NCBI GenBank assembly: GCA_963691655.1
Contig: OY829328.1
Location: forward strand, 35,979,890 to 36,043,889
DNA length: 64,000 nt
Source of the DNA: Toxonevra muliebris
Taxonomy: Eukaryota; Arthropoda; Insecta; Diptera; Pallopteridae
Direction: 5' to 3'
This document shows, piece after piece, positions 26,347-59,317 of this stretch. Positions within the stretch are counted from its first letter, which is position 1, and the number at the start of each line of letters is the position of its first letter. Position numbers and translations under genes: made by a program. The notes beneath the pieces were generated by a model. The model had not been told where the DNA came from. It searched no databases and saw nothing but the letters and a program-made list of their open reading frames with translations.

Positions 26347-26352
26347 AAACTG
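26347..26352. repeat. Polinton target-site duplication, left (AAACTG)
   Basis: AAACTG here and again at 42884-42889 immediately flanks the element ends. A 6-bp duplication is the known Polinton/Maverick insertion signature, matching retroviral-type integrase action. The copies are identical. Confidence 0.95.
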
Positions 26353-26554
26353 AGTAGTAGGGATATGTATGTTCTGGCACAAGGGGAATGGGGAATGGGG
26401 AATGAGGAATGGGGAATGGGGAATGGGGAATGGGGAATGAGGAATGGGGAATGGGGAATGGGGAATGAGGAATGGGGAATGGGGAATGGGGAATGGGGAA
26501 TGAGGAATGAGGAATGGGGAATGGGGAATGGGGAATGAGGAATGGGGAATGGGG

Positions 26555-26608
26555 CTTGTGCCAGAACATACATATACAGTAGTAGGGATATGTATGTTCT
26601 GGCACAAG
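26555..26608. repeat. 54-bp hairpin module, left TIR copy 1
   Basis: The arms begin CTTGTGCCAGAACATACA and form a 21-bp perfect inverted pair around a 12-base loop, ACAGTAGTAGGG. The right half plus loop reproduces the element's own terminus (AGTAGTAGGGATATGTATG). Identical modules occur at 26682 and 26809. Confidence 0.9.
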
Positions 26609-26681
26609 GGGAATGGGGAATGGGGAATGAGGAATGGGGAATGGGGAATGGGGAATGGGGAATGAGGAATGGGGAATGGGG

Positions 26682-26735
26682 CTTGTGCCAGAACATACAT
26701 ATACAGTAGTAGGGATATGTATGTTCTGGCACAAG
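26682..26735. repeat. 54-bp hairpin module, left TIR copy 2
   Basis: Same sequence and fold as the module at 26555. It is separated from it by a shorter heptad run. Confidence 0.9.
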
Positions 26736-26808
26736 GGGAATGGGGAATGGGGAATGAGGAATGGGGAATGAGGAATGGGGAATGGGGAATGAGGAATGGG
26801 GAATGGGG

Positions 26809-26862
26809 CTTGTGCCAGAACATACATATACAGTAGTAGGGATATGTATGTTCTGGCACAAG
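26809..26862. repeat. 54-bp hairpin module, left TIR copy 3
   Basis: Same sequence and fold as the module at 26555. It is followed by the last GGGGAATGGG and the start of unique TIR sequence. Confidence 0.9.
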
Positions 26863-27447
26863 GGGAATGGGAAACCGTTTTTTTAATAAGTAAATATATA
26901 TATTTTTCACAAAATAATAGACGGGAATTGCAAGAACCAATAATAATTTATATGAAACCTTTGAATAAGAACCAGGCAAACAGAAAAAAGAGAAAGCATA
27001 AATAACAAAAAATATTTTTTAACCCCGCACATCATTGTGTTTTTTTTTATATCTGAAGTTTGTTTTGTGATTCACATATAAGAACCAGACAAACAGAAAA
27101 AAGAAAAAGCATAAATAACAAAAAATATATTTTAACTCTGCACATCATTGTGTTTTTTTTTTTTTTTTTTTTGATATTTGAAGTTTGTTTTGTGATACAC
27201 ATAGGATAGGATACATATTAGCTGCAGAACAAATTATCAGAACAGGAAAAAGAACTGTATTCTCATTCCCCATTGGCATCATATAGAAACAATATACAAA
27301 AAATATATTTCAACTCCGCACATCATTGTGTTTTTTTTTTGATATTTGAAGTTTGTTTTGTGATACACATAGGATAGGATAGGATAGCTGATACGCTACA
27401 AAACGAATTTCCAGAACAGAACTGTATTCTCATTCCCCTAATCCCAT

Positions 27448-27499
27448 TTGTGCCAGAACATACATATACAATAGTAGGGATATGTATGTTCTGGCACAA
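27448..27499. repeat. Diverged hairpin module, inner left TIR
   Basis: TTGTGCCAGAACATAC arms around ACAATAGTAGGG: one loop change against the outer modules. It is flanked by ATTCCCC / GGGGAATGG on either side. Its inverse is at about 41676-41724. Confidence 0.8.
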
Positions 27500-28511
27500 T
27501 GGGGAATGGGGAATGGCTTTTTTTACGCCACCAGGCAAGCAGGAAAAGTAGAAAGCATAAATGGAATACAATTTTGCTTTATTTTTCCCTCCCTTTCCTT
27601 ACATACATACATACATACACACTCATTAAAAAGACCTAGTGTTTTTTCTCACGATCATTGTTTACATTTGGCACAGTGAATTGAGAGGAGTCAAGTGCAT
27701 ATCAGCCGCAAAATCAAATTATCACATACTGTGATTTGTAAATATTGCCTTTAAATGATACAGTCATACATTATGAAAAATTTCATGTTTAAACATGTTC
27801 AATAAGTTGAAAAGCACCAAGCGAACAGGAAAAAGGACTGCATTCTCAGTTTTAACTATTCTTTCTTGCATTGTGGGAAAAAAATCTTGCATAACAGTTT
27901 TGTTTGTTATCACATACTGTGATTTGTATATATTGCCTTTAATTAATCGATTTCACTTCTCCACGATCATTGTTTACATTTTGTTGAATGTGATACACAC
28001 ACTCAATGTTCAATAAGTTGAAAAGCACCAAGCGAACAGGAAAAAGGACAGCATTCTCATTCTTAACTATTCTTTCTTGCATTGTGACAAAAAAATCTCA
28101 CAATTGTTTACAATAAACTTCCCTTAGTCGATTAATTAACTTCTCCACGATCGTTGTTTACATTATTGTGCTTGTGGTCTTATGTGTGGGCAGAAGTGCA
28201 GTATCACTCTAAGTATTCATTATGCTTATTTACGCTTATTGTAAGTATGTATTTATTTGTATGTTTATACGTATGTATGTTTGTATGTACGTTTATACGT
28301 ATTGGCAAAAGTGGAGTCTCTCTTGCATTATGTATGTATGTAAGTTTGTGTAGATTGATAATATGTATGTATGTATATTAGTAGATGCTGAGGGATATAT
28401 AACTGTATAAACTTTTATGTCACAGATATTATCTATCAGTGTTAGAAGACGGTACTGATTTTAAAAATTTACGCGCAACGCGAGTTTATTCATATCAAGA
28501 AAAAATAAAAA

Positions 28512-31500
28512 ATGAAGACCTTCGAGTGTTTAGAGTGCGGTGCGTCGTTCTTAACAAACACTAATTTGTTGCGCCACAAGAGGTCGGTCCATGATCAAAA
28601 AAAAGTTAATTGTGAGCTCTGTAATAAATCGTTCATGAGAAATGACGGTTTATTACGTCACAAAAGAGCTGTCCACTCAATAGTGGCAAGTGAAGGGGCC
28701 TCAACTTCGCATAACGCGATGCAAGTTGAGGCACCCATAGAAACAGTGGAGTCAGTGATTAATAATGGTGCTTCAACTTCGCATAACGCGATGCAAGTTG
28801 AGGCACCCATAGAAACAGTGGAGTCAGTGATTAATAATGGTGCTTCAACTTCGCATAACGCGATGCAGGTTGATGACACCATAGACAGTGACAATATTTC
28901 AAAAATAATTGATGTTCCAACGGGTGAACATGAAAAGTTTAACTTTAAAAATAATGGGAACCGCGATTTCCTACAAAACATTAAAAAAGATGTAACAACA
29001 GTTGTGAAAGAACTGTTGTTTGAACATAAAGAAATAGTTTTCAAAGCAAAACTAATTTGTGAAGATATTCCAGTGTACGACAACACTGGTATTATCAAAA
29101 AAATAACTTTTGAAACGGGTTCAAAAACAATTAACAATCAAAGCGCTATTAATCCGACATATAATGAAATATGTGAAGAATTAAAACAAAAAATTCATGA
29201 CCACACCGAATCGGGTGCGTCTTCATTTTTAGACCTTATTAGCTTAGAAGTTAATAAGGTCATAACAAAAAAAGTGAAATATTGCACAATGTGCAAAGTG
29301 AACATTGCGATAAACGAGTGGAGTGGTCACATTAGGACCAATGAACACAAAAAAAATTCTTTGTTTCAAATAGAAGATAATCTATTTAAAATAAGAACCG
29401 GAAGTTTCAATAACCGTATTGTAACTTACCGAATAAAAAATAAGGACGAGTATAATCTCGATCCGATGAATTTTTTTAACGCAATAAGAAATCAGACGCA
29501 CAAACTTTTAAGTGATTTCTTATTGCGACATATTGCATGCAAATACAATATCGAGTTGTATTGCGTGTACATTAAAACAATTGAAAACGAAAGCGAAGAC
29601 GCTTTCGAAAGTGAGAACATTGAGCTAAGTTTGAAAACGTTTCAAACGAAAATGCGCGTTGTACAAAACAATGCGGAAATACCTCAATCTTTCACCGAAA
29701 AAGTTGAGGATATTATCCAAAACAAATTAAGTGCTTTTGAAGAACGAGGTAGCGGTTGGTCGCTTTTCAGTATCTGCTACCTCGATATTAGCATAAATAA
29801 ATACGCCGCGCTTAGAGGTTCGTCTTACCTTAAGCTTCCAAAATATTTGGAAGACAAACGGGCATGCATAAATATAAAAAACGAAGACAATTTTTGTTTT
29901 AAGTGGGCTGTGATATCAGCTTTAAAAAATGTCGCGAATAATCCGCAGAGAGTTGCATCGTATGCAATAATAAACATTAATGCTAATAGCATAAAAATCG
30001 GTGATCAAAATATTAATTTTAGTGGATTAGAATTTCCACTTAAAATTACCGGGATAAAAACATTTGAAAATAATAACCCGATTAGTGTAAACGTTTTCGG
30101 TTACGACGCGGACTCAAAACAAATAGTGGGTCCGTACTATACGACCAAATGTGAACGAGATACTCACATCAATTTGCTGCTACTTCAGGAAGATGACATT
30201 TTCCATTACGTGTGGATAAAACATATTTCAAGGTAAAAATAATTTTTATATGAACTTTTATTTCAAATTTTTATTTATATTATTTATTTTTCATAGTACA
30301 GTTTTTTATATCATACTATATATATATATCATACTGACTTTATTTATTTATTATTATTTTAGACTAATAAGGAGCCAATTGACTGCCCACTCTACGGAGT
30401 TGTACATATGCAATGTATGCTTACAACATTTTTTGAGGGAGGAGCAGCTAACCATCCACAAGACGGAGTGCAGAAAAATTGTGAGCAGGATGCCGAATGC
30501 GGATAAATCGGTAATTAGTTTTAAAAACTATAATAAAATGGTAGATGTACCATTCGTTATATATGCGGATTTTGAATGCATTCTTCAAAGTGTTGATACA
30601 TGCACTCAAAATCCGACATCTAGTTATAGTAATATAGTGAATAAGCACGTCCCTTGTGCATTCAGTTACTTTATCAAATGTTCATATAATGACGCATTAA
30701 ATAAGCACATAATATATAAAGGGGATGATGCCCCCAGCGTATTTATTGATAGCTTAGTTAAGGATATCAAAGATATCTATTATAAATACACCTCAATTAT
30801 AAAGCCAATGAATCATTTATCATTAGAAGAAGAAATTTTTCAAATTAATAGCCCCATTTGCCATATTTGTAAAAAGTTTTTAAATCAGACAGATAGAGTT
30901 TCTAATCATTGTCATCTAACTGGCAAATATAGAGGACCAGCACATTCAGAGTGCAATTTAAAATATGTTTCCCCTAAATTTTTCCCAATTTTTTTTCATA
31001 ACTTTTCTGGCTATGATTGTCATTTATTTGTTAAGGAATTAGCAAATATTCCAGGTGACATTACATTAATTCCTTTAAATAAGGAATTATATATATCACT
31101 TTCAAAGCTTATAGTTGTGAGTGATAATCAAACTATAGAGCTAAGATTTTTAGACTCCTTTAGATTCATGCCCTCAAGTTTAGAATCTTTAGCTAAAAAT
31201 CTCATGAAAGAAGATTTTCAAGCAGTTAAGTCAAAGTTCGAAAGTGATAACGAATTTAATTTAATTACTAGAAAAGGAGTATTCCCTTATGAGTACATAG
31301 ACTCTTGGGAAAAGTTAAATGAAAATTGTCTCCCATCTCGCGATAAATTTTTCAGTAGATTAAACAACATTGAATGCTTGGAGGAGGACTTCCAACATGC
31401 TCAAAATGTTTGGGATTCCTTCCAGTGCAGATCAATGTGGGATTATCTGGAACTATATTTAACATCTGACGTGCTTCTGCTTACAGATATTTTTGAAAAT

Positions 31501-32976
31501 TTTAGAAAAATTTGCAAAAAAATATATAATCTTGACCCTTGTCATTATTATACAGCACCTGGTCTGTCATGGGATGCCATGTTAAAAATAACTGAAATAA
31601 AACTTGAACTTTTCAGTGATATTAATATGCAGACATTTGTCCAAAGGGGCATACGGGGAGGCATTGTTCAATGTTCTAAAAGGCATTCGAAAGCAAACAA
31701 TAAATACTTGAGTAATTATGATGATGATAAAACATCTGAATATCTCATGTATTTAGATGCAAATAATTTGTACGGTTGGGCTATGTCACAACCGCTACCA
31801 TATGGTAATTTTGAGTGGATTGATGCAATCGATTTTGACATCTCTCAAATAAATTCTGATTTGAGTGTAGGTTATATTTTGGAAGTGGATTTAGAATATC
31901 CAAGTGCTATTCATGATTACCACAATGATTTGCCATTTTGTGCGGAAATCAAAACAGTTGGGGACTCCAAATTTGCGAAGTTAATACCCAACTTAGGAAA
32001 TAAAACCAAATATATTATTCATTATCAAAATTTACTGCAATGCCTAAAATATGGTTTAAAATTGTCACAAATTCATAGAGTTCTACGGTTTAGTCAAAAA
32101 TGTTGGTTGAAAGACTACATTGATTTAAATACTCACCATAGAACACTAGCAAGAAATGAGTTTGAAAAGAATTTCTTTAAGCTATTGAACAATGCCGTGT
32201 ATGGAAAAACAATGGAAAATGTAGAAAAGCGAAAAGATGTTAAAATAGTGACAGGATGGGAAAATAGAGGGAGACATTTAGGGGCGAGAGCTCTAATTGC
32301 CAAGCCTAATTTTCATAGCTGTACCGAATTCATTACAAATATGGTTGCGGTTCAAATGAATAGAGTGCATATATGCTATGATAAACCAATATATTTAGGT
32401 TTCTGTGTGCTTGAAATATCAAAGTGGAAAATGTATGATTTCCATTATGATTACATGAAACCTAAATATAATGAAAATTTGTGTTTGAACTATATGGATA
32501 CAGATTCATTTGTATACACAATAAAAACTGAAGACTTTTATTGTGATATTGCAAATGATATCGATTCAAAATTTGACACTTCTGATTATCCCCCCGAAAA
32601 TCGTTTCAAATTTCCTCAAAAAAATAAAAAAGTTTTGGGAATGATGAAAGACGAAAATCAGGGGAGAATAATGAAAGAATTCATTGGCTTAAGGTCAAAA
32701 ATGTATTCCATTGATGTGGAAAATTGCAATGAAATAACAAAGGCTAAAGGGGTAAAGAAGTCTGTCCTTAAAGATATGGGTCTAATTGACTATAAAGAGT
32801 GTCTTTACAACAAAAAAGTATTTCGTGGATGTATGTATACATTTAAATCAAACATGCATACTGTGTATACAAACGCATTAAACAAAATAACTTTGAGTTG
32901 TAACGATGACAAAAGGTGCATTAGATCTGATGGCATCAATACATACGCTTGGGGGCATTATAGAATAGATGTGTAA
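28512..32976 (+). CDS. Polinton DNA polymerase B (pPolB), two exons
   Basis: Protein-primed-type family B DNA polymerase that would copy the linear element. Exon 1 is 28512-30232 and exon 2 is 30363-32976 (stop at 32974-32976). Splicing out 30233-30362 keeps frame through a split Arg codon and gives 1444 aa. Residues 4-55 hold two C2H2 fingers; a 24-residue repeat (GASTSHNAMQV start) occurs 2.5 times; further Cys/His clusters lie near 256-282 and 588-611. The exonuclease motif ADFEC is near residue 643, then an HNH/endonuclease VII-like CHIC...HCHLTGKYRGPAH cluster (~740-775), ExoII-type FLDSFRFM and ExoIII-type YLTSD. Palm motifs are LDANNLYGW (A, ~1036), KLLNNAVYGKTMEN (B, ~1177) and YMDTDS (C, ~1284). 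All catalytic Asp positions are present. AATAAA at 33087-33092 is a plausible 3' end signal. Length fits the family. Confidence 0.93.
28695..28870 (+). repeat. 72-bp coding tandem repeat in pPolB exon 1
   Basis: Units at 28695-28766 and 28767-28838 are nearly identical in DNA, and a third partial unit starts at 28839 and drifts after GASTSHNAMQV. Each encodes 24 residues, so the frame is kept. The unit is Ser/Thr/acidic and lies between the C2H2 fingers and the body of the protein, so it reads as a flexible linker. The near-identity implies recent duplication. Confidence 0.85.
30233..30362 (+). other. 130-bp intron in pPolB
   Basis: Donor AG|GTAAAA and acceptor TATTTTAG with an AT-rich interior of poly-T character. 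The reading frame before and after is in phase across the junction (2 + 1 bases of an Arg codon), and the conserved Cys/His segment follows directly. Without removal, a stop at 30234-30236 ends the protein before the polymerase domain. This supports a real intron over a frameshift. Confidence 0.85.
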
Positions 32977-33259
32977 GAGTTCTTTATTTTATAAGTTTAA
33001 CTTTATTTGAATATTGTGATTGTATAGTTCTTTATTTTATAAGTTTTGATCCCTTTTATAAAAAAAAAAAAAAGGAAAAATATGTAAATAAATGAAAAAA
33101 TGTTGTGCTTTGTATTTATTTCAAAATGAATTCTTTATTATTAATAAAATGTTTAATAAAAATAAAAAATTACATATGTTCTTATTTTATTTGCAACGAT
33201 GATTATGCCAAAGTAAGTATTCCATTTTCAGAGGGTTCCAATATTTCTCCGTTTTGTGT
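32977..33259. other. Convergent intergenic region pPolB/MCP
   Basis: A 20-bp block, TTCTTTATTTTATAAGTTT, occurs twice (about 32981 and 33028). AATAAA on plus (33087) and TTTATT (AATAAA on minus, for example 33187) serve tail-to-tail genes as candidate polyadenylation signals. No other gene. Confidence 0.6.
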
Positions 33260-34453
33260 TTATACAATTTTTCGTATTTCATTTGTTAGAGGAGTATATT
33301 CAATAAGACGATCGTGAAGTAATAAACAATATGCAGACGTATTTGCTGGAATGTTACTTGAAGATTTAAATTCGATTCTAATATCAATTGGTCCAGTTTT
33401 AACACTTTCATTCTGATATGTCACATCTATTACTATTAACGGTGCATCAGATTTATATTTTTCGGAAGTTAGAAGTGGTTGAGGATCTCTCATATAATAG
33501 GATTGTTGGAATTTTGAATACATTTCATATAATATGGCATAACGATCATGATCAAATTTCACATTTAGATCTTCATATGGGTATGTTTCTGAATTTAAAT
33601 ATACTTTCAAGTCAGTGAGATTACAATGTTGAAATGTATTTTTATTCTTTCCATCAGTTGATTGAAATCCAATAATTATTTGACGTGGCCTTTCATTTTG
33701 AAGAGCAAGTTTAACATTCCAAATATGATTTGTACCTGCAACAAGTGTGGGGTTTATATGACAATCCCAACTGCGAAATGCTAATTGGATAGGACGGCTG
33801 CTTTTAATTGTCTTGTAAATCTCTAGCTTAGTTGAATCTGATAGTTGAATATGAGGAACTTTCCACATAACATTTGAAATTTGAATTTTAACCTTTTCAT
33901 TCGGATCAGTAGAAAGAGCAACAAATTCATCCGATTTAGCACGTCGTAGAATTAATTCATGTTTCGCATTCAAAATTATTTTATGATAGTCTTCAGCAAA
34001 TCCTAAAAACATTTTTAACGGGATGCAAAAGTTAAAATGTCCTTCTTTTGGTACTAATTCTTTATGAGTTGACCATCCCGCATTCTGCAGCATTTTGCTT
34101 TCATTACCGCTTAGAGAAACATAATTTTTCATTGTTGTACTGATTCCTAGATTACGTGTCCGATCAATTTCCATTCCATTTATTTCATAACGAATTTCAT
34201 CAAATAAAAATCCTATACAATTGTTTTTGAATTTAATATTATTTGAAACTTTCTTCGGATCTACTGTTATTAAACCATCAATAAAAATAAAACTTTCGCT
34301 AGGTAAAATGTAGAGATCCTGATGTTGAATTGGTATACGGATTTCATCGCTGTTATTAAATGATTGTAAGTATGATGAGTAGCTATGATACTCTTTTTTG
34401 ATAACACTGTCATCATACAAAGGTTTTTGTAAAATGTTGATTATTTCACTCAT
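33260..34453 (-). CDS. Polinton major capsid protein (hexon-like, double jelly roll)
   Basis: The 397-aa protein starts MSEIINILQKPLYDDSV and has YEINGMEIDR, DYHKIILNAKHEL, HCNLTDLKVYLNSETYPYEDLNVKF and a C-terminal NIPANTSAYCLLLHDRLIEY. I recognise these as the pattern of animal Polinton/adintovirus hexon proteins. The double-jelly-roll fold is known for the family and is not proven by the sequence. Length fits a PRD1-like capsid subunit. The start ATG overlaps the stop of the upstream 56-aa gene in ATGA, which implies one transcriptional unit with the penton gene. No signal peptide or membrane span is visible. It would build the icosahedral shell. Confidence 0.85.
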   Translation of the reverse strand: MSEIINILQKPLYDDSVIKKEYHSYSSYLQSFNNSDEIRIPIQHQDLYILPSESFIFIDGLITVDPKKVSNNIKFKNNCIGFLFDEIRYEINGMEIDRTRNLGISTTMKNYVSLSGNESKMLQNAGWSTHKELVPKEGHFNFCIPLKMFLGFAEDYHKIILNAKHELILRRAKSDEFVALSTDPNEKVKIQISNVMWKVPHIQLSDSTKLEIYKTIKSSRPIQLAFRSWDCHINPTLVAGTNHIWNVKLALQNERPRQIIIGFQSTDGKNKNTFQHCNLTDLKVYLNSETYPYEDLNVKFDHDRYAILYEMYSKFQQSYYMRDPQPLLTSEKYKSDAPLIVIDVTYQNESVKTGPIDIRIEFKSSSNIPANTSAYCLLLHDRLIEYTPLTNEIRKIV

Positions 34454-34620
34454 AATAGTTTTTTTATTTTGAATCCTAATGTTTTCAAAAATTCCGTATT
34501 TGATTTTGTTAATATTTTGTTTTGAGCTCTCGTTTCTATGACTCCTCTTGTTTGTTCAACAGTTGACATAGAACTGACAAAAGGTACATGTTTCATAAAA
34601 TTTTTATTATAAATAATCAT
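34450..34620 (-). CDS. 56-aa Polinton small protein between capsid genes
   Basis: ATG at 34620-34618 overlaps the penton TGA, and its own TGA overlaps the MCP ATG, so both junctions are 4-bp ATGA overlaps. The 56 residues are basic and Lys/Thr-rich, ending LTKSNTEFLKTLGFKIKKLL, an amphipathic-helix-like tail. I recognise no family name. A frame placed so precisely between two capsid genes is unlikely to be chance. It could be a capsid accessory or assembly peptide. That is inference from position only. Confidence 0.7.
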   Translation of the reverse strand: MIIYNKNFMKHVPFVSSMSTVEQTRGVIETRAQNKILTKSNTEFLKTLGFKIKKLL

Positions 34621-35303
34621 TCTTTTTGAGGTTTAAGGTGGATCCGAAGAGTGATTGTTTCTCCGCGGAAATTTATTAGATCACCGTTTTGATCTACCAG
34701 CTTAACTGATATAGAACTTATCTCGCGAACGTTCACTGGTAAATATATAACATTATTCGGAACTTCGTTTATTTTATAGCCTGGGCTAACATCTGGTGAA
34801 AATTCATGAAGCGTATGCACAGGCACGTTATTTATGTATGATCCCATTATCAAATTACATTCAATGCGTATGCTATTAACTTTAATAATATTAACAGGAT
34901 TGTCAGATATATGTAATGTATTTGCGTTTAGTTCTCTTTTGCTAAATCCTAATAGCGAACCGATACTTCGATCTCTATTGAACCAGATTTGTTTATTGGA
35001 CTTGACTTCTGTTTTGAGCGTGTTGTTGTTTGCATAAATTGACAATGTAGTTGACAAGTTTGCACGTTGCAATTCCGACACAATATAATTTTTGATATCA
35101 TCCACCTCGTAAGATCCCACAGGTATTTCAACAACGCCACCTTCATAATGAAACAAATTATTAGTCTCATCGACGTTAGGTATAGAATTATAAGTTTGAA
35201 AATCAACAAGACCGCACAAGTAGTTTGTTTTTAATTGTATTGGTGGAAAATAATCTGCAGTTAATACTGAAGTATCTCCATTCAAAATAAATGTCATCGA
35301 CAT
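34617..35303 (-). CDS. Polinton minor capsid protein (penton-like)
   Basis: The 228-aa protein has FILNGDTSVLTADYFPPI near the N-terminus, LVDFQTYNSIPNVDETNN, then IPVGSYEVDDIKNYIV, SIGSLLGFS and PGYKINEVPNNVIYLPV, ending in FRGETITLRIHL. I recognise this as the single-jelly-roll penton-type protein of animal Polintons (recalled family pattern). It would occupy icosahedral vertices next to the hexon shell. A second in-frame ATG at residue 3 gives almost the same protein. Its stop overlaps the next small gene in ATGA. A 48-bp gap separates it from the protease stop. No insertion or frame break is seen. Confidence 0.85.
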   Translation of the reverse strand: MSMTFILNGDTSVLTADYFPPIQLKTNYLCGLVDFQTYNSIPNVDETNNLFHYEGGVVEIPVGSYEVDDIKNYIVSELQRANLSTTLSIYANNNTLKTEVKSNKQIWFNRDRSIGSLLGFSKRELNANTLHISDNPVNIIKVNSIRIECNLIMGSYINNVPVHTLHEFSPDVSPGYKINEVPNNVIYLPVNVREISSISVKLVDQNGDLINFRGETITLRIHLKPQKE

Positions 35304-35351
35304 GTTGATGGTTTAAAATGAAATAGCTTTTTGTGTGTATTGAAATTATAT

Positions 35352-35624
35352 TTATATATTTATTTCATATAAAAATTTTAAACATAAATGTCCACAATTA
35401 AAAGTATTATATTTTTGATGTCTGGTGTGATTATATCTAATGTTATGACCTAAGTACTTTATTATCTCTAATGGAGGTCGTAAATTTCCGAAACTATCGA
35501 AGTATTCATTATTGTTACAATTTTTATGATATGCTACCCAATGTGTGCCGAAACCAGAGCTGTCATCCAAATTAACTATACCACATTCATGTTTGCGAGG
35601 TTTTTTCGGTAGAGAGTTGCGCAT
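35352..35624 (-). pseudogene. Adenovirus-type cysteine protease, 5'-truncated or broken
   Basis: The 90-aa frame from the first ATG holds the full catalytic set of the adenain (C5) family: His28 in GTHWVAY, Asp43 in EYFDSFG, oxyanion Gln70 and Cys77 in FNCGHLC, with the family's Q-x6-C spacing. Maturation of capsid proteins would be its role. Conserved sequence continues in the same frame upstream of the ATG (FRGVFMRN and, further up, an ALNENDIIKY-type segment), but TAA at 35649-35651 interrupts it. The family is usually longer, so either the gene is disabled, or translation starts at the internal ATG. A third option is that splicing (TTTCAG just upstream, 35640-35635) bypasses the stop. All three remain possible. 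Confidence 0.75.
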
Positions 35625-35704
35625 GAAAACTCCTCTGAAATTAGCTAATTAACGTGTATATTTTATTATATCATTTTCATTGAGGGCTCTTTTGGGTAGT
35701 CTTT

Positions 35705-36529
35705 CTAAAAGTTTTTTGAACTCGGTGATAGATATAAACCATATCCTTTTTTATAAGGTTTGAGATGAAGTCCTTTTCCCATAGCTATAGCTTCAATAGT
35801 TTTGTTGTGGCGGTTAGCTTCTTTTAATTCTTCTCTTGCAGACTTTGCTGAAGTAATCCATTTTGCAACACCTGATGCACCAGATGTTACTGCACCCAGA
35901 GCTGATAAGGCCGCGAATAGTGGTATTAAAGGTAGCAATCCTCCAACTTTTGGAATGGGTATTATCCTAGGTATTTTAATATTTGATTTATTTTCACCAA
36001 AAGTTTTAGATATGGTTTTTCTAGCTGCTGCTATGGCACTTTTAATATCATAAGATTTTTTTACAACCTTTTTAGCATCTGTAACTGCTTTATTAAATAG
36101 TTTCCTTTCAACTGCATTGTACTTTTGCTTTGTCTTAATACCCATACCCAATTTAACTTTTGTTTTCATAGCGTTTGTTACAAACCAAGCTGCTGCACGT
36201 TCACTGACTTTACTATCTTTAGATTTGACACGATTCCACGCTTTTTCCTTTAAAATCTGATCTGCTATATGACGTTTTTGTACGTCTTTATTTTGCGAAT
36301 AAGCTATATCGTGAGCTTTACAAGCTGCATCTAATGGGTTTATACCTTTATCACCCCTTAGCAACCGCTTCTCTAGTTTTGTACCAGGACCGCAAAATTG
36401 ATAACCAGGCAAGTGAAGTTCAACCGGTAGACTGTTTATTAAATTGTTGACAAAACCTTTTCCTTCACGTGCTTGATTTCGACTGACAGGATATTTATAA
36501 AAATGTTTCATAATACATTGTTTATTCAT
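35705..36529 (-). CDS. Phospholipase A2-domain protein (parvovirus VP1-like)
   Basis: The 274-aa protein carries a VP1-type PLA2: calcium-loop segment YQFCGPG at residues 43-49 and the His-Asp catalytic pair in KAHDIAY (H73, D74, Y77). In parvoviruses this domain opens endosomal membranes during entry. In animal Polintons such proteins sit with the capsid genes, so a virion role is likely (inference). The middle is Lys/Arg-rich. Residues about 195-222 (LLPLIPLFAALSALGAV) are hydrophobic and could insert in membranes. The C-terminus is LKPYKKGYGLYLSP. The 3' end overlaps in another frame the upstream extension of the protease. The gene is divergent from the ATPase with a 57-bp gap. Confidence 0.85.
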   Translation of the reverse strand: MNKQCIMKHFYKYPVSRNQAREGKGFVNNLINSLPVELHLPGYQFCGPGTKLEKRLLRGDKGINPLDAACKAHDIAYSQNKDVQKRHIADQILKEKAWNRVKSKDSKVSERAAAWFVTNAMKTKVKLGMGIKTKQKYNAVERKLFNKAVTDAKKVVKKSYDIKSAIAAARKTISKTFGENKSNIKIPRIIPIPKVGGLLPLIPLFAALSALGAVTSGASGVAKWITSAKSAREELKEANRHNKTIEAIAMGKGLHLKPYKKGYGLYLSPSSKNF

Positions 36530-36586
36530 TAAAGTACACTCAATAAATGAAGATAACGCAATACAAGTTCCTGATATATATCAATA
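36530..36586. promoter_or_regulatory. 57-bp divergent promoter region PLA2/ATPase
   Basis: Starts of the minus-strand PLA2 gene (36529) and plus-strand ATPase gene (36587) leave only 57 bp. It contains GATATATATC at about 36573-36582, a TATA-like string near the ATPase start, and AT-rich DNA. It must hold both promoters or lie within an untranslated leader. No other motif is recognised. Confidence 0.45.
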
Positions 36587-37273
36587 ATGCGGTTAATTAA
36601 ACAAAATCAGACGATAAAAGTGAGAAATGTCGATCATTCTACAGAAAATTCCAGGGTTGTGAAACATAGTTCATTACTACCAAATAATATAAGATCACTT
36701 ATTGTGGGACCATCAAATTGTGGAAAGACGAATGTTATGCTAAGTTTAATAGAAAGCCCTAATGGACTCAAATTTGAAAATATATATATATTCTCGAAAT
36801 CTTTATATCAACCAAAATATGAATATCTGAAACAATTGATATCTTCCATTAAAGGAATAGGATATCACACATTTTCTCAAAATACTGATGTATTTCCACC
36901 AGAAAATGCCAAACGCAACTCCATTATGATATTTGATGATGTAGCTTGTGAGAAACAAAATAACATACGTTCATACTTTTGCATGGGACGACATAAAGAT
37001 ATAGATAGTTTTTATTTATGTCAAACTTACACACATGTACCAAAACATTTGATTCGAGATAATGCTAACTTTATTATTATATTTAAACAAGATGATATGA
37101 ATATGAAACATATTTATAGTGATCACGTAACTACAGATATGTCTTATGAAAAGTTTCGCGAAATATGCGCTGAATGCTGGAAGGAGAAATACGGTTTTTT
37201 GGTAATAAGCAAGGATGATTCTATTGATACATCACGATATAGAAAGGGATTTGATATTTTCATTCAACTATAA
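36587..37273 (+). CDS. Genome-packaging ATPase (FtsK/HerA type)
   Basis: The 228-aa P-loop ATPase has Walker A GPSNCGKTN at residues 41-49 and Walker B SIMIFDDV near 112-119. It continues with a central YLCQTYTHVPKHLIRDN segment (sensor/arginine-finger region) and a C-terminal FREICAECWKEKYGFLVIS. This is the A32/FtsK-type motor of Polintons and related viruses, which translocates DNA into preformed capsids. Length and motif order are complete, with no break. The first ATG sits 57 bp from the divergent PLA2 gene. 186 bp of spacer with tandem repeats follows. Role in packaging is established for the family and inferred here. Confidence 0.92.
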   Translation: MRLIKQNQTIKVRNVDHSTENSRVVKHSSLLPNNIRSLIVGPSNCGKTNVMLSLIESPNGLKFENIYIFSKSLYQPKYEYLKQLISSIKGIGYHTFSQNTDVFPPENAKRNSIMIFDDVACEKQNNIRSYFCMGRHKDIDSFYLCQTYTHVPKHLIRDNANFIIIFKQDDMNMKHIYSDHVTTDMSYEKFREICAECWKEKYGFLVISKDDSIDTSRYRKGFDIFIQL

Positions 37274-37386
37274 AACATTTGACAACATCACATATTTAAT
37301 CAGTTCTTATTATAACCTATTCGAATGCTGTAATTAATATCTGATCTGTTAAAAACTGTTTTTGATATTTGTTAAACCTGTTTTGG

Positions 37387-37458
37387 GAGCTGTTAAACTT
37401 TTTAGAGAGCTGTTGAACTTTTTAGAGAGCTGTTAAACTTTAAGAGAGACCTGTTAAA
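37387..37458 (+). repeat. 20-bp tandem repeats before the 296-aa gene
   Basis: Units GAGCTGTTAAACTTTTTAGA start at 37387, 37407 and 37427 (third truncated), with partial forms before and after (CCTGTTTTGG, ACCTGTTAAA). The last abuts the ATG at 37459. The array sits where a promoter or leader would be, so it may regulate the gene. No transcription factor site is assigned. Confidence 0.65.
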
Positions 37459-38349
37459 ATGGATGAAAAAGTACTAAGAGACATTATAAAAACTAGGAAT
37501 GTAATACGTCAAAAACACAAAGCCCTCAAAATTGGCGAATCTAATGCAGAAGCATTCTTTCAAACTACTTTTAAGCCAATAACAAAACCATTGAAAGAAT
37601 TTGTTGATGCGTCATCCAAAAATATTAATATTAAACCAGACGAAACAGTTTTTAATGACGAGATTAATTATAAGAAGTTGAAGGCAACAAGTACACCATT
37701 GAAAAACCCTAAACTTTTTGACGATACTTTTGCAACACCAAATCAAACATATAGTCTTGATGAAACTACAAAATTAAATCAAAGCCATCAAACTTTTCCT
37801 TCTGGCGTGCGTCTACATGATTTAAGTCAATTAGCACAGAAAAATGAGTTAGACGTAGTGTATGGGCCACATAAGGACAGTGATGGTATATGGAGAATTG
37901 GAAATGCTTCATTCATTTTAAATGATGATGAAATTCGTATAAATAATAAGAAATGGTATCTAACGCCAGGATTATATCAACTAATATTTTACAAAGCACC
38001 CCAAGAATATGCTGATGATGATTTAGATATTTATAAAAAAATTTTATTCGATACAAATGCGCATAAGCGAAATTATAAAAAACAAGAACAAAATAGAGGC
38101 ACGCGATCATCTAAGTATCAAAATATTATTAAAAATCTAATAAATGAAAAACCCAAGGAATATCCTAAGGGAAGCGGTTTAATGGAATTAAGTAAAAAAA
38201 GAGTAAACTATGTGTATTGGAATGATCTCAATGAATTGGTTGATAGGTTACGTCTTTTAATATCATCCCAACAAGCTGGACACAATAATCATAATAATGA
38301 AATAATTTCTATTATTGAAGAGCTAAAAGAAGAAGGAATTATAACATAA
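37459..38349 (+). CDS. Conserved Polinton protein, unknown function (296 aa)
   Basis: The N-terminal half is Lys/Asn/Thr-rich and probably disordered. The C-terminal half has DGIWRIGNASFILNDDEI, YLTPGLYQLIFYKAP, TNAHKRNYKK, GTRSSKYQNIIKNLI and finally VYWNDLNELVDRLRLLISSQ. I recall this C-terminal block as recurring in animal Polinton-encoded proteins, but know no biochemical role. It lies between the ATPase and the fibre-like gene in one plus-strand unit. A virion or morphogenetic function is the obvious guess from position only. Confidence 0.8.
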   Translation: MDEKVLRDIIKTRNVIRQKHKALKIGESNAEAFFQTTFKPITKPLKEFVDASSKNINIKPDETVFNDEINYKKLKATSTPLKNPKLFDDTFATPNQTYSLDETTKLNQSHQTFPSGVRLHDLSQLAQKNELDVVYGPHKDSDGIWRIGNASFILNDDEIRINNKKWYLTPGLYQLIFYKAPQEYADDDLDIYKKILFDTNAHKRNYKKQEQNRGTRSSKYQNIIKNLINEKPKEYPKGSGLMELSKKRVNYVYWNDLNELVDRLRLLISSQQAGHNNHNNEIISIIEELKEEGIIT

Positions 38350-38368
38350 ATTGATTTACATTTTGAGG

Positions 38369-38818
38369 ATGTATAACACTTTCCCGATGAGTGTAGATAA
38401 GTTTGGACGTTTTTCTAACAAGAATAATCATAAGCAGCGAGGACCAGTTGGGCCCCGTGGTTATGGCTTCAACTTGACTGAAGATGATAATTTTGATTTA
38501 AAATTAAAATGCATTCAGAATTTAGGAGAGCCGTTAAAAGAACACGATGCTACAACGAAAAAATTTGTTAACGATCAAGTTAATTTATGTTCGCAAAATT
38601 TAAATCAAAATATTAACAATTTAAGAATTGAAGTACTACAACGTATTAGATATGACAACATTGAATTAAAAAGAACCCTTGAAGAATTTATTGATAAAAA
38701 ACTACTATCCCATATAAATGATGTCGATAACAAGATAACAGACCTAGAAGATTATATGTTTAGTCACATGTCGACAGTCACAAAGGTTCCCGCAACGATT
38801 CCAACAATAAAATTTTAA
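38369..38818 (+). CDS. Collagen-like/coiled-coil fibre-type protein
   Basis: The 149-aa protein (from ATG at 38369; a later ATG at 38387 gives 143 aa) has a short Gly-Pro segment RGPVGPRG (residues 24-31), then NLGEPLKEHDATTKKFVND (51-69). The latter resembles the LKNVxDPxxxxDAVTKKYV motif of phage tail fibres. A long heptad-like helix follows (LNQNINNLRIEVLQRIRYDN and on). The order collagen-like, repeat, coiled coil suggests a trimeric spike or fibre attached to the penton (inference). It starts 20 bp after the previous stop and ends 4 bp before the integrase ATG. Confidence 0.7.
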   Translation: MYNTFPMSVDKFGRFSNKNNHKQRGPVGPRGYGFNLTEDDNFDLKLKCIQNLGEPLKEHDATTKKFVNDQVNLCSQNLNQNINNLRIEVLQRIRYDNIELKRTLEEFIDKKLLSHINDVDNKITDLEDYMFSHMSTVTKVPATIPTIKF

Positions 38819-38822
38819 TATC

Positions 38823-39740
38823 ATGAGTAAAAGACAATTAGTCGAAGAGTTACACAAACAAGCTCGTAAAAATTTTAAGCGTCGTAGGGTGATTATAAAA
38901 GGAATAGATGACTTATGGCAAGCAGATTTGGTTGAAATGGGGAATTTTTCAACATATAATAAAGGTCATCGGTATCTTTTAACTGTTATTGATACTTTTT
39001 CAAAATTTGCATGGGGTGTAGCCCTAAAATCAAAAAATGCCTTAGATGTGACAACAGCAATGAAAGGAATATTTGATTCGGGACGAAAACCAAATAATTT
39101 GCAGACTGATGATGGAAAGGAATTCTTTAATAAACATTTTCAAAACTTAATGAAAAGTCAAAACGTAAATCACTACTCAACATACAGCATATTAAAAGCT
39201 TCAATCGTCGAACGATTCAATAGAACGTTAAAAGGAATGATGTGGAAAGAGTTTAGTTTTAATGGTACATATCAATGGCTAAATATTTATAAGTTTTTAA
39301 TAAATAATTATAATAATAAACGTCACCGAACCATAAAAATGGCACCTTCTTATGTAAATTCTTCAAATGAAAATTTATTGTTAAACACTGTGTATAGCAA
39401 CTTGAAGAAATTTCACATACCTAAATTCGGTGTTGGTGATTATGTGCGAATTAGTAAATATAAACATTTATTTGAGAAGGGGTACACACCTAATTGGACC
39501 ACTGAAATTTTTAAAATTAAAATTATACAAGTAACAAATCCTACTACATACATATTAGAAGATTATCAAGGAAATGTAATAAAAGGAGGATTTTATGAAA
39601 TGGAATTAATGAAAACAAAATATCCTAGCTTGTATCTCGTTGAAAAAGTGTTGAAATGTAAAGGTGATAAGGTCTTTGTGAAATGGTTAGGATTCACAAA
39701 AGAACATAATTCATGGATAAATAAAAACGAAATTCTCTGA
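38823..39740 (+). CDS. Polinton integrase with C-terminal chromodomain
   Basis: The 305-aa retroviral-type integrase inserts the element with 6-bp duplication. Catalytic core residues are visible: D35 in QADLVEM, D96 in LQTDDGKEF and E130 in SIVERFNRTLK. A GVGDYVRISK segment begins the SH3-like region. Residues about 268-305 (LVEKVLKCKGDKVFVKWLGF, then NSWINKNEI) form a chromodomain that could read histone methylation and bias integration. The element's own AAACTG duplication agrees with this activity. The frame is intact and the length matches the family. No Zn-binding HHCC N-terminus was recognised. Confidence 0.93.
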   Translation: MSKRQLVEELHKQARKNFKRRRVIIKGIDDLWQADLVEMGNFSTYNKGHRYLLTVIDTFSKFAWGVALKSKNALDVTTAMKGIFDSGRKPNNLQTDDGKEFFNKHFQNLMKSQNVNHYSTYSILKASIVERFNRTLKGMMWKEFSFNGTYQWLNIYKFLINNYNNKRHRTIKMAPSYVNSSNENLLLNTVYSNLKKFHIPKFGVGDYVRISKYKHLFEKGYTPNWTTEIFKIKIIQVTNPTTYILEDYQGNVIKGGFYEMELMKTKYPSLYLVEKVLKCKGDKVFVKWLGFTKEHNSWINKNEIL

Positions 39741-39981
39741 ACTACTAATATACATATTTATATATACTAAAAAATTACCCCTTAAATATAACACATAAGG
39801 CAGATGAAAAAGAAAATATATATGCATGCGTTAGAAAAGGATGAATATAAAATAATTCCGATTTCTTTTTTATATTTATCTTAGTAAAATATTTTCATTG
39901 TAAGATTTTGTATAAAAGGTCTTTGCAAATAAGTTAAACGATCAGTTTTTGACAAGCATAGTACAGCGAACTAAAATTAAA
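39741..39981. other. Intergenic region integrase to 110-aa gene
   Basis: AT-rich, with no ORF or recognised repeat. It probably holds the 3' end of the plus-strand unit and the promoter of the next gene. The upstream in-frame TTG at 39949 is not taken as start. Confidence 0.5.
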
Positions 39982-40314
39982 ATGACTACAGCCGCAATTA
40001 ATGATTTCAATTGTAAAAATAAGAAGCAGCTGCTGTCTGTTAAAGATATGGATGAAAATAAACCATATTCAGTGATTATCGTCGTACGTAAAACTACACC
40101 ATACGGAATGAGACTAGAGATGGAGTTAGCAGAATTTCGTGTGATTCTTCCTGAACGATACGTTGAAGTTTTGGACACAACTTTAACGGCGGTTAATGAA
40201 GGTGGCTTTGAATTAATTAAAACATCAACAAATGGTGGCAAAACCTATAACTTCGAAATTTGCATCGCAGGAGATATTTCATGTCAACGTAAACAGCCTT
40301 TTTATTATTGTTAA
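39982..40314 (+). CDS. Small Polinton protein, 110 aa, unknown (OB-like?)
   Basis: ATG at 39982 (ATTAAAATGAC context) gives a 110-aa product with alternating hydrophobic beta-type segments: PYSVIIVVRKTTPYGMRLEM, ELAEFRVILPERYVEV, NGGKTYNFEICIAGD. I recall similar small proteins in insect Polintons, and the pattern would fit an OB-fold single-strand DNA-binding protein, which a protein-primed replicator would need. That assignment is weak inference. AATAAA at 40331-40336 follows the stop by 17 bp. The next gene is convergent. Confidence 0.65.
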   Translation: MTTAAINDFNCKNKKQLLSVKDMDENKPYSVIIVVRKTTPYGMRLEMELAEFRVILPERYVEVLDTTLTAVNEGGFELIKTSTNGGKTYNFEICIAGDISCQRKQPFYYC

Positions 40315-40391
40315 ACATATTTTTCCTTTGAATAAAATAAAAAACCAATTTAAATTAACCCCAACAAGTATCTTTTCTTTATTTATTTAAT

Positions 40392-40682
40392 TCATATATT
40401 ACAGCAAGGTGGAAAATTAGTGGTTAGCCTATAGTACAATTTCATAAGTTTTTCAGCATTTCTATTTCCAAACATTTGGCATTTACATGTATCTGGTCCT
40501 TCTGTTGCATTTTTGTCAGACCATGGACAAGTTCGAAGGTGATCATCAGGACTTAAAAGAAATGATTTTTCAAACTCCTTCTCCTCTAGCTCTGCTTGCA
40601 AATGTAACAATTGTGTTCTATGCTCATCCAAAATAATAAAATCAAATTCTATTAAAAATTCTTTTATTTTATTGCTATCCAT
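40392..40682 (-). CDS. Cys-rich 96-aa protein next to right TIR
   Basis: From ATG at 40682 (the TTG at 40706 is inside the TIR boundary and not used) the product is acidic and helical, DEHRTQLLHLQAELEEKEFEK. It then has Cys52, Cys66, Cys68, Cys93 and Cys94 in HLRTCPWSD, DTCKCQMF and PPCCN, which suggests a metal-binding tail. No family name is known to me. It begins 22 bp inside the TIR, mirroring pPolB, which starts 25 bp inside the left TIR, so both could be driven by TIR promoters. A double TTTATT on plus gives minus-strand AATAAA signals. Confidence 0.6.
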   Translation of the reverse strand: MDSNKIKEFLIEFDFIILDEHRTQLLHLQAELEEKEFEKSFLLSPDDHLRTCPWSDKNATEGPDTCKCQMFGNRNAEKLMKLYYRLTTNFPPCCNI

Positions 40683-42308
40683 TTTTAACTTTATTACTTT
40701 AAACAAACTCGCGTTGCGCGTAAATTTAAAAAAAAAGTATCGTCTTTTAGCACTGTTAGATAGTATCTGTCACATAAAATTTTATATTGTTATATATACA
40801 CACATATTATCAATCTACACAAACTTACATACATACATAATGCAAGAGAGACTCCACTTTTGCCAATACGTATAAACGTACATACAAACATACATACGTA
40901 TAAACATACAAATAAATACATACTTACAATAAGCGTAAATAAGCATAATGAATACTTAGAGTGATACTGCACTTCTGCCCACACATAAGACCACAAGCAC
41001 AATAATGTAAACAATGATCGTGGAGAAGTTAATTAATCGACTAAGGGAAGTTTATTGTAAACAATTGTGAGATTTTTTTCCCACAATGCAAGAAAGAATA
41101 GTTAAAAATGAGAATGCTGTCCTTTTTCCTGTTCGCTTGGTGCTTTTCAACTTATTTAACATTGAGTGTGTGTATCACATTCAACAAAATGTAAACAATG
41201 ATCGTGGAGATGTGAAATCGATTAATTAAAGGCAATATATACAAATCAGAGTATGTGATAACAAACAAAACTGTTATGCAAGATTTTTTTCCCACTGTTA
41301 TGCAAGAAAGAATAGTTAAAAATGAGAATGCAGTCCTTTTTCCTGTTCGCTTGGTGCTTTTCAACTTATTGAACATGTTTAATCATGAAATTTTTCATAA
41401 TGTATGACTGTATCATTTAAAGGCAATATTTACAAATCACAGTATGTGATAATTTGATTTTGCGGCTGATATGCACTTGACTCCTCTCAATTCACTGTGC
41501 CAAATGTAAACAATGATCGTGGGAAAAAACACTAGGTCTTTTTAATGAGTGTGTATGTATGTATGTATGTAAGGAAAGGGAGGGAAAAATAAAGCAAAAT
41601 TGTATTCCATTTATGCTTTCTACTTTTCCTGCTTGCCTGGTGGCGTAAAAAAAGTCATTCCCCATTCCCCATTGTGCCAGAACATACATATCCCTACTAC
41701 TGTATATGTATGTTCTGGCACAAATGGGATTAGGGGAATGAGAATACAGTTCTGTTCTGGAAATTCGTTTTGTAGCGTATCAGCTATCCTATCCTATCCT
41801 ATGTGTATCACAAAACAAACTTCAAATATCAAAAAAAAAACACAATGATGTGCGGAGTTGAAATATATTTTTTGTATATTGTTTCTATATGATGCCAATG
41901 GGGAATGAGAATACAGTTCTTTTTCCTGTTCTGATAATTTGTTCTGCAGCTAATATGTATCCTATCCTATGTGTATCACAAAACAAACTTCAAATATCAA
42001 AAAAAAAAAAAAAAAAAACACAATGATGTGCAGAGTTAAAATATATTTTTTGTTATTTATGCTTTTTCTTTTTTCTGTTTGTCTGGTTCTTATATGTGAA
42101 TCACAAAACAAACTTCAGATATAAAAAAAAACACAATGATGTGCGGGGTTAAAAAATATTTTTTGTTATTTATGCTTTCTCTTTTTTCTGTTTGCCTGGT
42201 TCTTATTCAAAGGTTTCATATAAATTATTATTGGTTCTTGCAATTCCCGTCTATTATTTTGTGAAAAATATATATATTTACTTATTAAAAAAACGGTTTC
42301 CCATTCCC

Positions 42309-42362
42309 CTTGTGCCAGAACATACATATCCCTACTACTGTATATGTATGTTCTGGCACAAG
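42309..42362. repeat. 54-bp hairpin module, right TIR, inner of five
   Basis: Inverse of the left modules: CTTGTGCCAGAACATAC arm, loop CCCTACTACTGT, second arm. Five such copies in the right TIR start at 42309, 42436, 42535, 42641 and 42747, each separated by ATTCCCC/ATTCCTC runs. The terminal half-copy is at 42852-42883. Confidence 0.9.
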
Positions 42363-42435
42363 CCCCATTCCCCATTCCTCATTCCCCATTCCCCATTCCT
42401 CATTCCCCATTCCTCATTCCCCATTCCCCATTCCC

Positions 42436-42800
42436 CTTGTGCCAGAACATACATATCCCTACTACTGTATATGTATGTTCTGGCACAAGCCCCATTCCCC
42501 ATTCCTCATTCCCCATTCCCCATTCCCCATTCCCCTTGTGCCAGAACATACATATCCCTACTACTGTATATGTATGTTCTGGCACAAGCCCCATTCCCCA
42601 TTCCTCATTCCCCATTCCCCATTCCCCATTCCCCATTCCCCTTGTGCCAGAACATACATATCCCTACTACTGTATATGTATGTTCTGGCACAAGCCCCAT
42701 TCCCCATTCCTCATTCCCCATTCCCCATTCCCCATTCCCCATTCCCCTTGTGCCAGAACATACATATCCCTACTACTGTATATGTATGTTCTGGCACAAG
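42436..42800. repeat. Four further right-TIR hairpin modules
   Basis: Complete modules at 42436-42489, 42535-42588, 42641-42694 and 42747-42800, identical to 42309-42362. Spacings of 99-127 bp reflect different heptad numbers. Confidence 0.9.
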
Positions 42801-42883
42801 CCCCATTCCCCATTCCTCATTCCCCATTCCCCATTCCCCATTCCCCATTCCCCTTGTGCCAGAACATACATATCCCTACTACT

Positions 42884-42889
42884 AAACTG
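42884..42889. repeat. Polinton target-site duplication, right (AAACTG)
   Basis: Identical to 26347-26352 and directly follows the terminal ACTACT. Confidence 0.95.
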
Positions 42890-59090: not shown

Positions 59091-59317
59091 TAGGCTTGCC
59101 ATAACTTTTCCGGTCCAATTCCTGACGCTGGCCAAAATTTCAAATTATCTATTAAAACTCAAAATAAAAAATGCTGAAGCACAAAAAACAACTCATGAAA
59201 TTAAAAACAAAAAATGTATTTAATTTTAAATGTAAAGTGTGTTTTTTTAGAAGTGTGGTTTTCAATCTGGCAATACTTTTTTTGGAGTTGGTCTTTTTGA
59301 CAGCTGTCACTTGATTT

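What the first reader, a model, noticed from the sequence alone, without database searches (positions are those of the whole stretch)
26353..42883. Complete, recently inserted Polinton/Maverick with a full virion-type gene set
Polymerase, integrase, ATPase, protease, hexon-like and penton-like proteins plus a PLA2 protein are all present, mostly unbroken, inside matched 2.1-kb terminal repeats with a perfect AAACTG duplication. Open frames and near-identical TIRs imply recent activity. Such elements are argued to be integrated viruses, and an almost intact copy is a good candidate for mobility in this host.
Basis: partly seen in the sequence, partly recalled or inferred. Interest (0 to 1): 0.9.

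Follow-up and report, generated by a model that had tools for sequence, protein, structure and literature searches.

The report
Complete insect Maverick/Polinton, one gene damaged
A 16.5-kb integrated virus-like element (a Maverick/Polinton of the insect type) sits whole in what is probably a fly chromosome, with closely matching ends and a nearly complete set of capsid and replication genes; it is a good specimen of a known kind, and whether it still moves could not be tested.

Summary
Window 26353-42883 is a complete Maverick/Polinton: AAACTG duplicated at both sides, ~2.15-kb terminal inverted repeats (TIRs), (AGT)2//(ACT)2 ends, and genes for protein-primed polymerase, integrase, packaging ATPase, protease, double jelly-roll capsid protein, penton and a PLA2 protein. 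Predicted structures support both capsid folds. Corrections: the protease frame is cut near its start by an in-frame stop; the polymerase gene is split by a canonical 130-bp GT-AG intron; TIR divergence is uneven (terminal arrays differ; then 0 substitutions in 835 bp, 13 in the next 896). Unremarked: both termini are the last 30 bases of a 52-bp palindromic unit present ten more times in the TIRs; the break lies in its loop. The capsid protein has 1911 relatives; of 20 named among the 120 listed, 19 are from flies. Five of nine ORFs agree in length with published moth Mavericks. So: new member of a known kind, the insect-type Maverick. Mobility, copy number and empty sites are untested: all 19 requests to search the host assembly did not complete. 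Best reading: a young insertion; this copy is probably not autonomous if the protease stop is real.

The parts
26347..26352 (.). target site duplication, left (AAACTG)
   Evidence: read directly
26353..28502 (+). left terminal inverted repeat (2150 bp); near-identical to the right arm from 26636 to 28366, weak beyond; outermost arrays differ in unit number
26353..26861 (+). terminal half-unit, GGGGAAT heptamer arrays and three 52-bp palindromes (26556, 26683, 26810)
27448..27499 (+). fourth left palindromic unit, one change in the loop
28512..30232 (+). protein-primed DNA polymerase, first exon: two C2H2 fingers, in-frame 72-bp repeat, Cys and His motifs of vOTU type (ORF runs to a stop at 30234-30236, inside the intron)
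   Evidence: exon limit
30233..30362 (+). spliceosomal-type intron, GT-AG, 130 bp, 88% A+T
   Evidence: splicing inferred, not shown
30363..32976 (+). protein-primed DNA polymerase, second exon: exonuclease and polymerase motifs, endonuclease VII-like zinc motif
33260..34453 (-). major capsid protein, double jelly roll, 397 aa
   Evidence: PF21738 E=7.9e-135; model and fold matches
34617..35303 (-). penton (minor capsid) protein, single jelly roll, 228 aa
   Evidence: model; mavirus penton
35352..35624 (-). adenain/Ulp1-like protease, 90-aa remainder with the catalytic motifs; in-frame stop at 35649-35651 above it
35705..36529 (-). phospholipase A2 protein (CAP of insect Mavericks), 274 aa
   Evidence: PF08398 E=1.8e-14; GPGT and HDIAY motifs; weak PDB hits to parvovirus VP1, E 0.11 and above
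36587..37273 (+). packaging ATPase, A32/FtsK type, 228 aa
   Evidence: PF04665 E=9e-11; Walker motifs
37459..38349 (+). unknown protein, 296 aa; by length and place like ORF2 (305 aa) of Sf Mavericks
   Evidence: PMC5803895
38351..38818 (+). possible fibre-like protein (155 aa from TTG; 149 aa from the ATG at 38369); only weak hits to phage tail-fibre families
   Evidence: E=0.024 to 0.44
38823..39740 (+). retroviral-type (rve) integrase with D, D, E and a chromodomain-like tail, 305 aa
39949..40314 (+). small ORF of unknown function (121 aa from TTG; 110 aa from the ATG at 39982)
   Evidence: no relative found; no Pfam family above cut-off
40392..40706 (-). small ORF of unknown function (104 aa from TTG; 96 aa from the ATG at 40682)
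   Evidence: no Pfam hit
40690..42883 (-). right terminal inverted repeat (2194 bp)
41672..41723 (-). right inner palindromic unit
42310..42883 (-). five palindromic units (42310, 42437, 42536, 42642, 42748), heptamer arrays and the terminal half-unit
42884..42889 (.). target site duplication, right (AAACTG)
   Evidence: read directly

Best explanation
It is an insect-type (group II) Maverick/Polinton, adintovirus-like, that integrated as a linear double-stranded DNA into a probable fly chromosome. Shown by sequence or model: both ends, the 6-bp duplication, the genes and the two capsid folds. Inferred from the family: the integrase joins the two (AGT)2 ends to host DNA with a 6-bp stagger; the N-terminal part of the polymerase acts as terminal protein primer and starts synthesis at the AGTAGT end by jumping back; the ATPase fills an icosahedral capsid made of the double jelly-roll protein and the penton; the PLA2 protein breaches membranes on entry. 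The polymerase message needs splicing of one intron. Also inferred: part of the TIR was kept identical by copying of one end from the other, for example through annealed panhandles, and the arrays of palindromic end units are spare copies of origin and end. The insertion is recent in sequence terms, but this copy probably cannot mature virions alone because the protease is cut.
Against: The protease frame has a stop and its Pfam hit is below cut-off. Pfam gave no polymerase family to either polymerase piece and PDB gave no polymerase for the second, so that assignment rests on motifs. The penton (228 aa) has no counterpart by length in the moth elements (ORF6 148, ORF8 158), and polymerase and protease lengths differ from theirs. 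TIR divergence is uneven, which weakens TIR dating. No relative found in IMG/VR with MCP, integrase or polymerase, though the patterns were narrow. No expression, copy-number or empty-site evidence. Host not identified.
Confidence: 0.87

Rival explanations
1. It is a whole but dead insertion: old or silent, with TIRs kept alike by gene conversion in the chromosome, so that the near-identity says nothing about recent movement.
For: Protease cut by a stop; outside the terminal arrays the substitutions are confined to the inner part of the TIR (13 in 896 bp against 0 in 835 bp; shuffled P of such a leading clean run 0.00025, of any clean run that long 0.0025), which a uniform clock does not give.
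Against: The other assigned frames are open over their 0.5 to 2.7 kb, and the target duplication is perfect.
Confidence: 0.25
2. It is a currently mobile, horizontally spreading endogenous virus.
For: Near-complete gene set and a clean TIR stretch; many related capsid proteins, the named ones listed mostly from flies.
Against: Broken protease; the closest MCP listed is only 65% identical (the database is clustered at 90% and the host's own proteins may be missing) and the window's MCP stands on a branch of 0.35 changes per site; no expression data.
Confidence: 0.2
3. Assembly chimera: a free virus or contaminant joined to a host contig.
For: Nothing found.
Against: Perfect 6-bp duplication at both junctions and host-like sequence on both sides: a fibrinogen-domain exon at 4536-5561 and mariner-type transposase remains at 59-62 kb.
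Confidence: 0.02

Closest known systems
Sf Maverick 1 and 2 of Spodoptera frugiperda cells (PMC5803895; abstract, section 11 part 1 of 2, sections 12, 16, 21 and passages)
   Same: ATPase (228 aa in both), integrase with chromodomain, PLA2 'CAP', adenain-like protease, polymerase with endonuclease VII motif, a ~300-aa unknown ORF and a ~400-aa ORF7 that by length corresponds to the MCP identified here
   Different: There the polymerase is one 1162-aa ORF, here two ORFs split by an intron; there eight small ORFs in tandem, here PLA2-protease-penton-MCP run against ATPase-unknown-fibre-integrase; protease 133 aa there, 90 aa here; none of their unnamed ORFs (305, 148, 404, 158 aa) has the length of the penton here (228). 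The paper left ORF7 without a domain. Correspondence is by length and order only; no sequence of theirs was compared
Vertebrate Mavericks (PMC8097293; passages)
   Same: 6-bp duplication, (AGT)2//(ACT)2 termini, mean size 16.9 kb, polymerase, ATPase, integrase, protease, major and minor capsid
   Different: Their intact copies have intronless ORFs and TIRs of 46-1447 bp; here TIRs are 2.15-2.19 kb with palindrome arrays and the polymerase has an intron; group I carries a VSR insertion (PMC10328495), not seen here
Drosophila-associated adintoviruses 1-3 (PMC8363768; passages)
   Same: 13.3-14.6 kb insect-associated elements; the first is described with polymerase, integrase, capsid, protease and FtsK homologues; the first two are thought to be possibly integrated
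   Different: No sequence was compared here
Eupolintoviridae, formerly Adintoviridae; genus Alphadintovirus (NCBI taxonomy; PMC12451622 and PMC11071296 passages)
   Same: Polymerase, integrase and hexon plan
   Different: No reference sequence was held, so placement in the family or genus was not tested
Mavirus virophage
   Same: Penton and MCP folds are among the best solved matches
   Different: About 10% identity; solved mavirus MCP chains have 503-515 residues against 397 here
Casposons (PMC4046053; passages)
   Same: Self-synthesising prokaryotic elements some of whose TIRs contain internal palindromes
   Different: Prokaryotic elements; TIRs there have a median of 56 nt; the Cas1 integrase is from the listing and recall

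Membership tests
[quoted passage not shown]
   Exonuclease and polymerase motifs in order (DFE, NFSGYD, YLELYLTSDV, DANNLYG, KLLNNAVYG, YMDTDS) in the second exon (patterns recalled). By motif only: Pfam and PDB named no polymerase, and protein priming itself was not tested
Maverick/Polinton | retroviral-type integrase | tested here: met
   rve E=2.4e-13; D, D, E motifs; retroviral integrases in PDB E=1.5e-6
Maverick/Polinton | packaging ATPase (A32/FtsK) | tested here: met
   PF04665 E=9e-11 above cut-off; Walker A and B
Maverick/Polinton | adenain-type cysteine protease | tested here: inconclusive
   Catalytic motifs present, ASFV S273R E=8.5e-4 and adenain E=0.84, PF02902 below cut-off, frame cut by a stop
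Maverick/Polinton | double jelly-roll MCP and single jelly-roll penton | tested here: met
Maverick/Polinton | terminal inverted repeats, (AGT)2 ends, 6-bp target duplication | tested here: met
   motif from PMC8097293
Group II (insect) Maverick | polymerase without VSR insertion | tested here: inconclusive
   Pfam at E up to 1 shows endonuclease VII and a zinc finger but no VSR in the polymerase pieces; no positive control was run; criterion from PMC10328495
Adintovirus (PMC11071296 definition) | PolB with N-terminal OTU-like domain | tested here: inconclusive
   Cys and His motifs DNFCFKW and HYVWIK in the first exon; no domain hit in Pfam nor among the 60 of 151 PDB matches shown, which are zinc fingers
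Adintovirus (PMC11071296 definition) | rve integrase with C-terminal chromodomain | tested here: inconclusive
   Chromo E=0.013, 15.9 bits against a cut-off of 25.1, at the C-terminus
Adintovirus (PMC11071296 definition) | hexon recognisable by BLASTP to reference hexons | not tested
   no reference hexon at hand
'Intact' Maverick as used for vertebrates (PMC8097293) | conserved ORFs open and intronless | tested here: not met
   intron in the polymerase, stop in the protease

The most novel reading that the evidence does not exclude
The ends of this element are made by cutting the loop of a palindrome. Both termini are the last 30 bases of a 52-bp unit (arms of at least 20 bp, 12-nt loop) present ten more times in the TIRs, and the break lies 2 nt inside the loop, leaving AGTAGT at the 5' end without the AC/GT, as many bases as retroviral integrases trim (recalled). 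That would mean a hairpin-ended or concatemeric intermediate and a telomere-like reserve of ends, in addition to or in place of simple protein-primed replication.
Probability: 0.1. Interest if true: 0.65.

Novelty: new member of a known kind. Interest (0 to 1): 0.35.

Why it matters
Maverick particles had not been observed according to the start of the abstract of PMC8097293 (2021, listing), so near-complete young copies in insects are where the question can be put to test. This one adds a capsid-fold assignment that may carry over to the ~400-aa protein which PMC5803895 listed without a domain (by length, not by sequence comparison), an intron-split polymerase, and TIRs with an unevenly homogenised body and ten palindromic copies of the end, which give a concrete prediction about how the ends are made and kept.

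Tried and rejected
Host assembly: the genome search (own) with the MCP was asked 19 times and never answered, so copy number, empty sites and sister copies are untested.

Free or metagenomic relatives: IMG/VR scans with the MCP, an MCP alignment of 41 sequences, the integrase, the second polymerase piece and the 20-bp palindrome arm gave no relative. The phage collection gave none for the MCP. Rfam gave no match in the window, ARAGORN no tRNA.

Small ORFs: no homologue for the ORF at 39949-40314 and no Pfam family above cut-off for it or for 40392-40706; an idea that the first is a single-stranded-DNA-binding protein was dropped for lack of evidence. The 'fibre' reading of 38351-38818 rests on weak hits only (PDB gave nothing useful). 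The 33-aa piece above the protease stop matched nothing in PDB, so that it belongs to the protease is inferred from frame, from the ~133-aa length of a moth Maverick protease and from the weak adenain match that starts at adenain residue 34.

TIR fading was first taken as simple age; the run test makes a uniform clock unlikely. The test was chosen after seeing the data, and leaves out the terminal arrays 26353-26635 (11 substitutions and 4 gaps in an alignment of tandem repeats that is not reliable) and everything beyond 28366.

Literature: listings for palindromes or repeats at Polinton ends and for introns in Polinton polymerases. Of the papers listed I opened passages of PMC8097293, PMC6431247, PMC3630058, PMC12368964 and PMC4046053; among the passages seen only the last reports palindromes in TIRs, of casposons. 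PMC5753468 (the one intron listing) and others were not opened. Only open-access papers are held and the main adintovirus papers were not, so I make no claim that the palindromes or the intron are absent from print.
Full report
What is there. The element runs from 26353 to 42883 (16,531 bp). AAACTG stands immediately outside both ends. The ends read AGTAGTAGGG... and ...CCCTACTACT, i.e. (AGT)2//(ACT)2, the commonest end motif of vertebrate Mavericks (PMC8097293, passages). The terminal inverted repeats are 2150 and 2194 bp long if the weak inner block is counted: blocks of 1236 and 505 nt at 98-100%, then one of 108 nt at 82%.

TIR divergence is uneven. In the alignment of the two arms the outermost arrays (26353-26635) differ in the number of heptamer and palindrome units, with 11 substitutions and 4 gaps in an alignment of tandem repeats that is not reliable; 26636-27470 has no substitution (835 bp); 27471-28366 has 13 substitutions and one 3-bp indel; beyond 28371 homology is weak. 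If 13 substitutions fell at random on the 1731 bp from 26636 to 28366, a clean leading run of this length would appear with P=0.00025, and any clean run that long with P=0.0025 (test chosen after the fact). So the arms do not behave as a simple clock. Zero of 835 puts an upper 95% bound of about 0.36% (3/835, by hand) on divergence of that stretch, in line with a young insertion or with recent homogenisation.

Genes. Ten ORFs were scanned with Pfam and PHROGs and two small ones with Pfam. On the plus strand: a 574-aa ORF with two C2H2 fingers and the motifs DNFCFKW and HYVWIK, which fit the Cys and His of the vOTU domain described for Polinton polymerases (PMC11071308, abstract and sections 6 and 9; the assignment of these two motifs is mine); then a 908-aa ORF with the exonuclease and polymerase motifs in order. 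Pfam named no polymerase family for either. Between them lies AG|GTAAAAATAA...TTATTTTAG|A, a 130-bp GT-AG intron, 88% A+T; the stop that ends the first ORF is inside it, and the phase fits. Splicing is inferred. On the minus strand: MCP (PF21738, E=7.9e-135), penton (no Pfam family), protease remainder, PLA2 protein (PF08398, E=1.8e-14). On the plus strand again: ATPase (PF04665, E=9e-11), a 296-aa unknown, a 155-aa possible fibre, and the integrase (rve, E=2.4e-13). Two small ORFs lie between it and the near-identical part of the right TIR.

What is broken. The 90-aa protease ORF keeps HWV, DSFG and QKYNTFNCG but starts late: an in-frame TAA at 35649-35651 separates it from 33 open codons above. 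A moth Maverick protease has about 133 aa (PMC5803895, Table 2) and the weak adenain match begins at adenain residue 34 (E=0.84). I take this as a truncating stop; a short but working form starting at the inner ATG is not excluded.

Palindromes. The 20-bp arm occurs 11 times in each orientation, only inside the element; ten complete units have a 12-nt loop ACAGTAGTAGGG (one has ACAATAGTAGGG), four on the left and six on the right, and they are the only places in the window with perfect 20-bp arms and loops of up to 20 nt, arms of one or two letters left out. Each terminus is the last 30 bases of such a unit, beginning exactly at AGTAGTAGGG. Units are separated by heptamer arrays (GGGGAAT) or, for the inner ones, 586 bp. 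That the termini lie in the loop, two bases in, is a direct observation; that it reflects how ends are formed is inference. Some casposon TIRs also contain palindromes (PMC4046053, passages).

Relatives. The MCP has 1911 relatives at E<=0.001 among 3044 candidates; 120 were listed, all with PF21738; 20 of the 120 carry a species name, 19 flies (Lucilia, Calliphora, Stomoxys, Musca, Haematobia, Hermetia, Eupeodes) and one moth (Eumeta); best identity 65%. The penton has 1101 relatives among 1239 candidates, best listed identity 69%. In a quick tree of 78 MCPs (the window's and 77 of the 120 listed: the first 40, every third, and the named ones) the window's sequence stands on a branch of 0.35 among unnamed sequences, in no well-supported set of up to half of the rows. 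Host: probably a fly, from these names and a fibrinogen-domain exon at 4536-5561 (E=2.8e-48) that reminds me of scabrous (recalled). The host was not identified.

Classification. It meets the defining features of Mavericks/Polintons, with the protease inconclusive and the polymerase met by motif only. No VSR insertion, the mark of group I, was seen (PMC10328495, passages), but without a positive control. Five of the nine ORFs of the moth Sf Mavericks (PMC5803895) have a counterpart of similar length here; ORF7, left there without a domain, corresponds by length to the MCP; the penton has no counterpart by length, and polymerase, protease and strand layout differ. No sequence of theirs was compared. 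ICTV renamed Adintoviridae to Eupolintoviridae in 2025 (PMC12451622, passages), with the genus Alphadintovirus; the Alpha clade's reference comes from a midge (PMC11071296, passages). Membership there was not tested.

How it most likely works. As a linear DNA copied by a protein-primed polymerase from its AGTAGT ends, joined to host DNA by its integrase with a 6-bp stagger, and packaged by its ATPase into a capsid of MCP and penton. All these steps are inferred from the family. Shown here: the parts, their order, the ends, and, by prediction, the capsid folds. Not shown: expression, splicing, virions, mobility, copy number.

Verdict. It is a fine new member of a known kind, with an end structure worth following.

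Noticed in passing
4536-5561 (+): Fibrinogen C-terminal domain exon (PF00147, E=2.8e-48), probably a host gene; recalled as scabrous-like.
   Followed up: partly
61014-61768 (+): Mariner-type transposase pieces (PF01359 E=4.2e-23; HTH hits), broken into two frames.
   Followed up: partly
59315-60329 (+): Remains of another transposase-like gene (PF16087 DUF4817 E=8e-9 in 59315-59698; no hit in 59849-60196).
   Followed up: partly
28682-28897: Three in-frame 72-bp repeats in the first polymerase exon, 24 aa each.
   Followed up: no
27795-27887, 28006-28098 and mirror copies in the right TIR (ending 41162 and 41376): A repeated sequence beginning with ATG, open for 73 and 36 codons on the left and 36 and 74 on the right; possibly short peptide genes.
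   Followed up: partly
protein P0026: A capsid protein filed under the moth Eumeta japonica sits inside a group with Calliphora sequences in the tree, on a 21-kb contig: horizontal transfer or contamination, for example by a parasitoid fly.
   Followed up: no
3251-3882: Long pyrimidine-rich low-complexity stretch with overlapping, probably spurious ORFs.
   Followed up: no
36530-36586: The PLA2 and ATPase genes diverge from a 57-bp gap, which presumably holds both start regions; this layout differs from the tandem order reported for moth Mavericks (PMC5803895).
   Followed up: no
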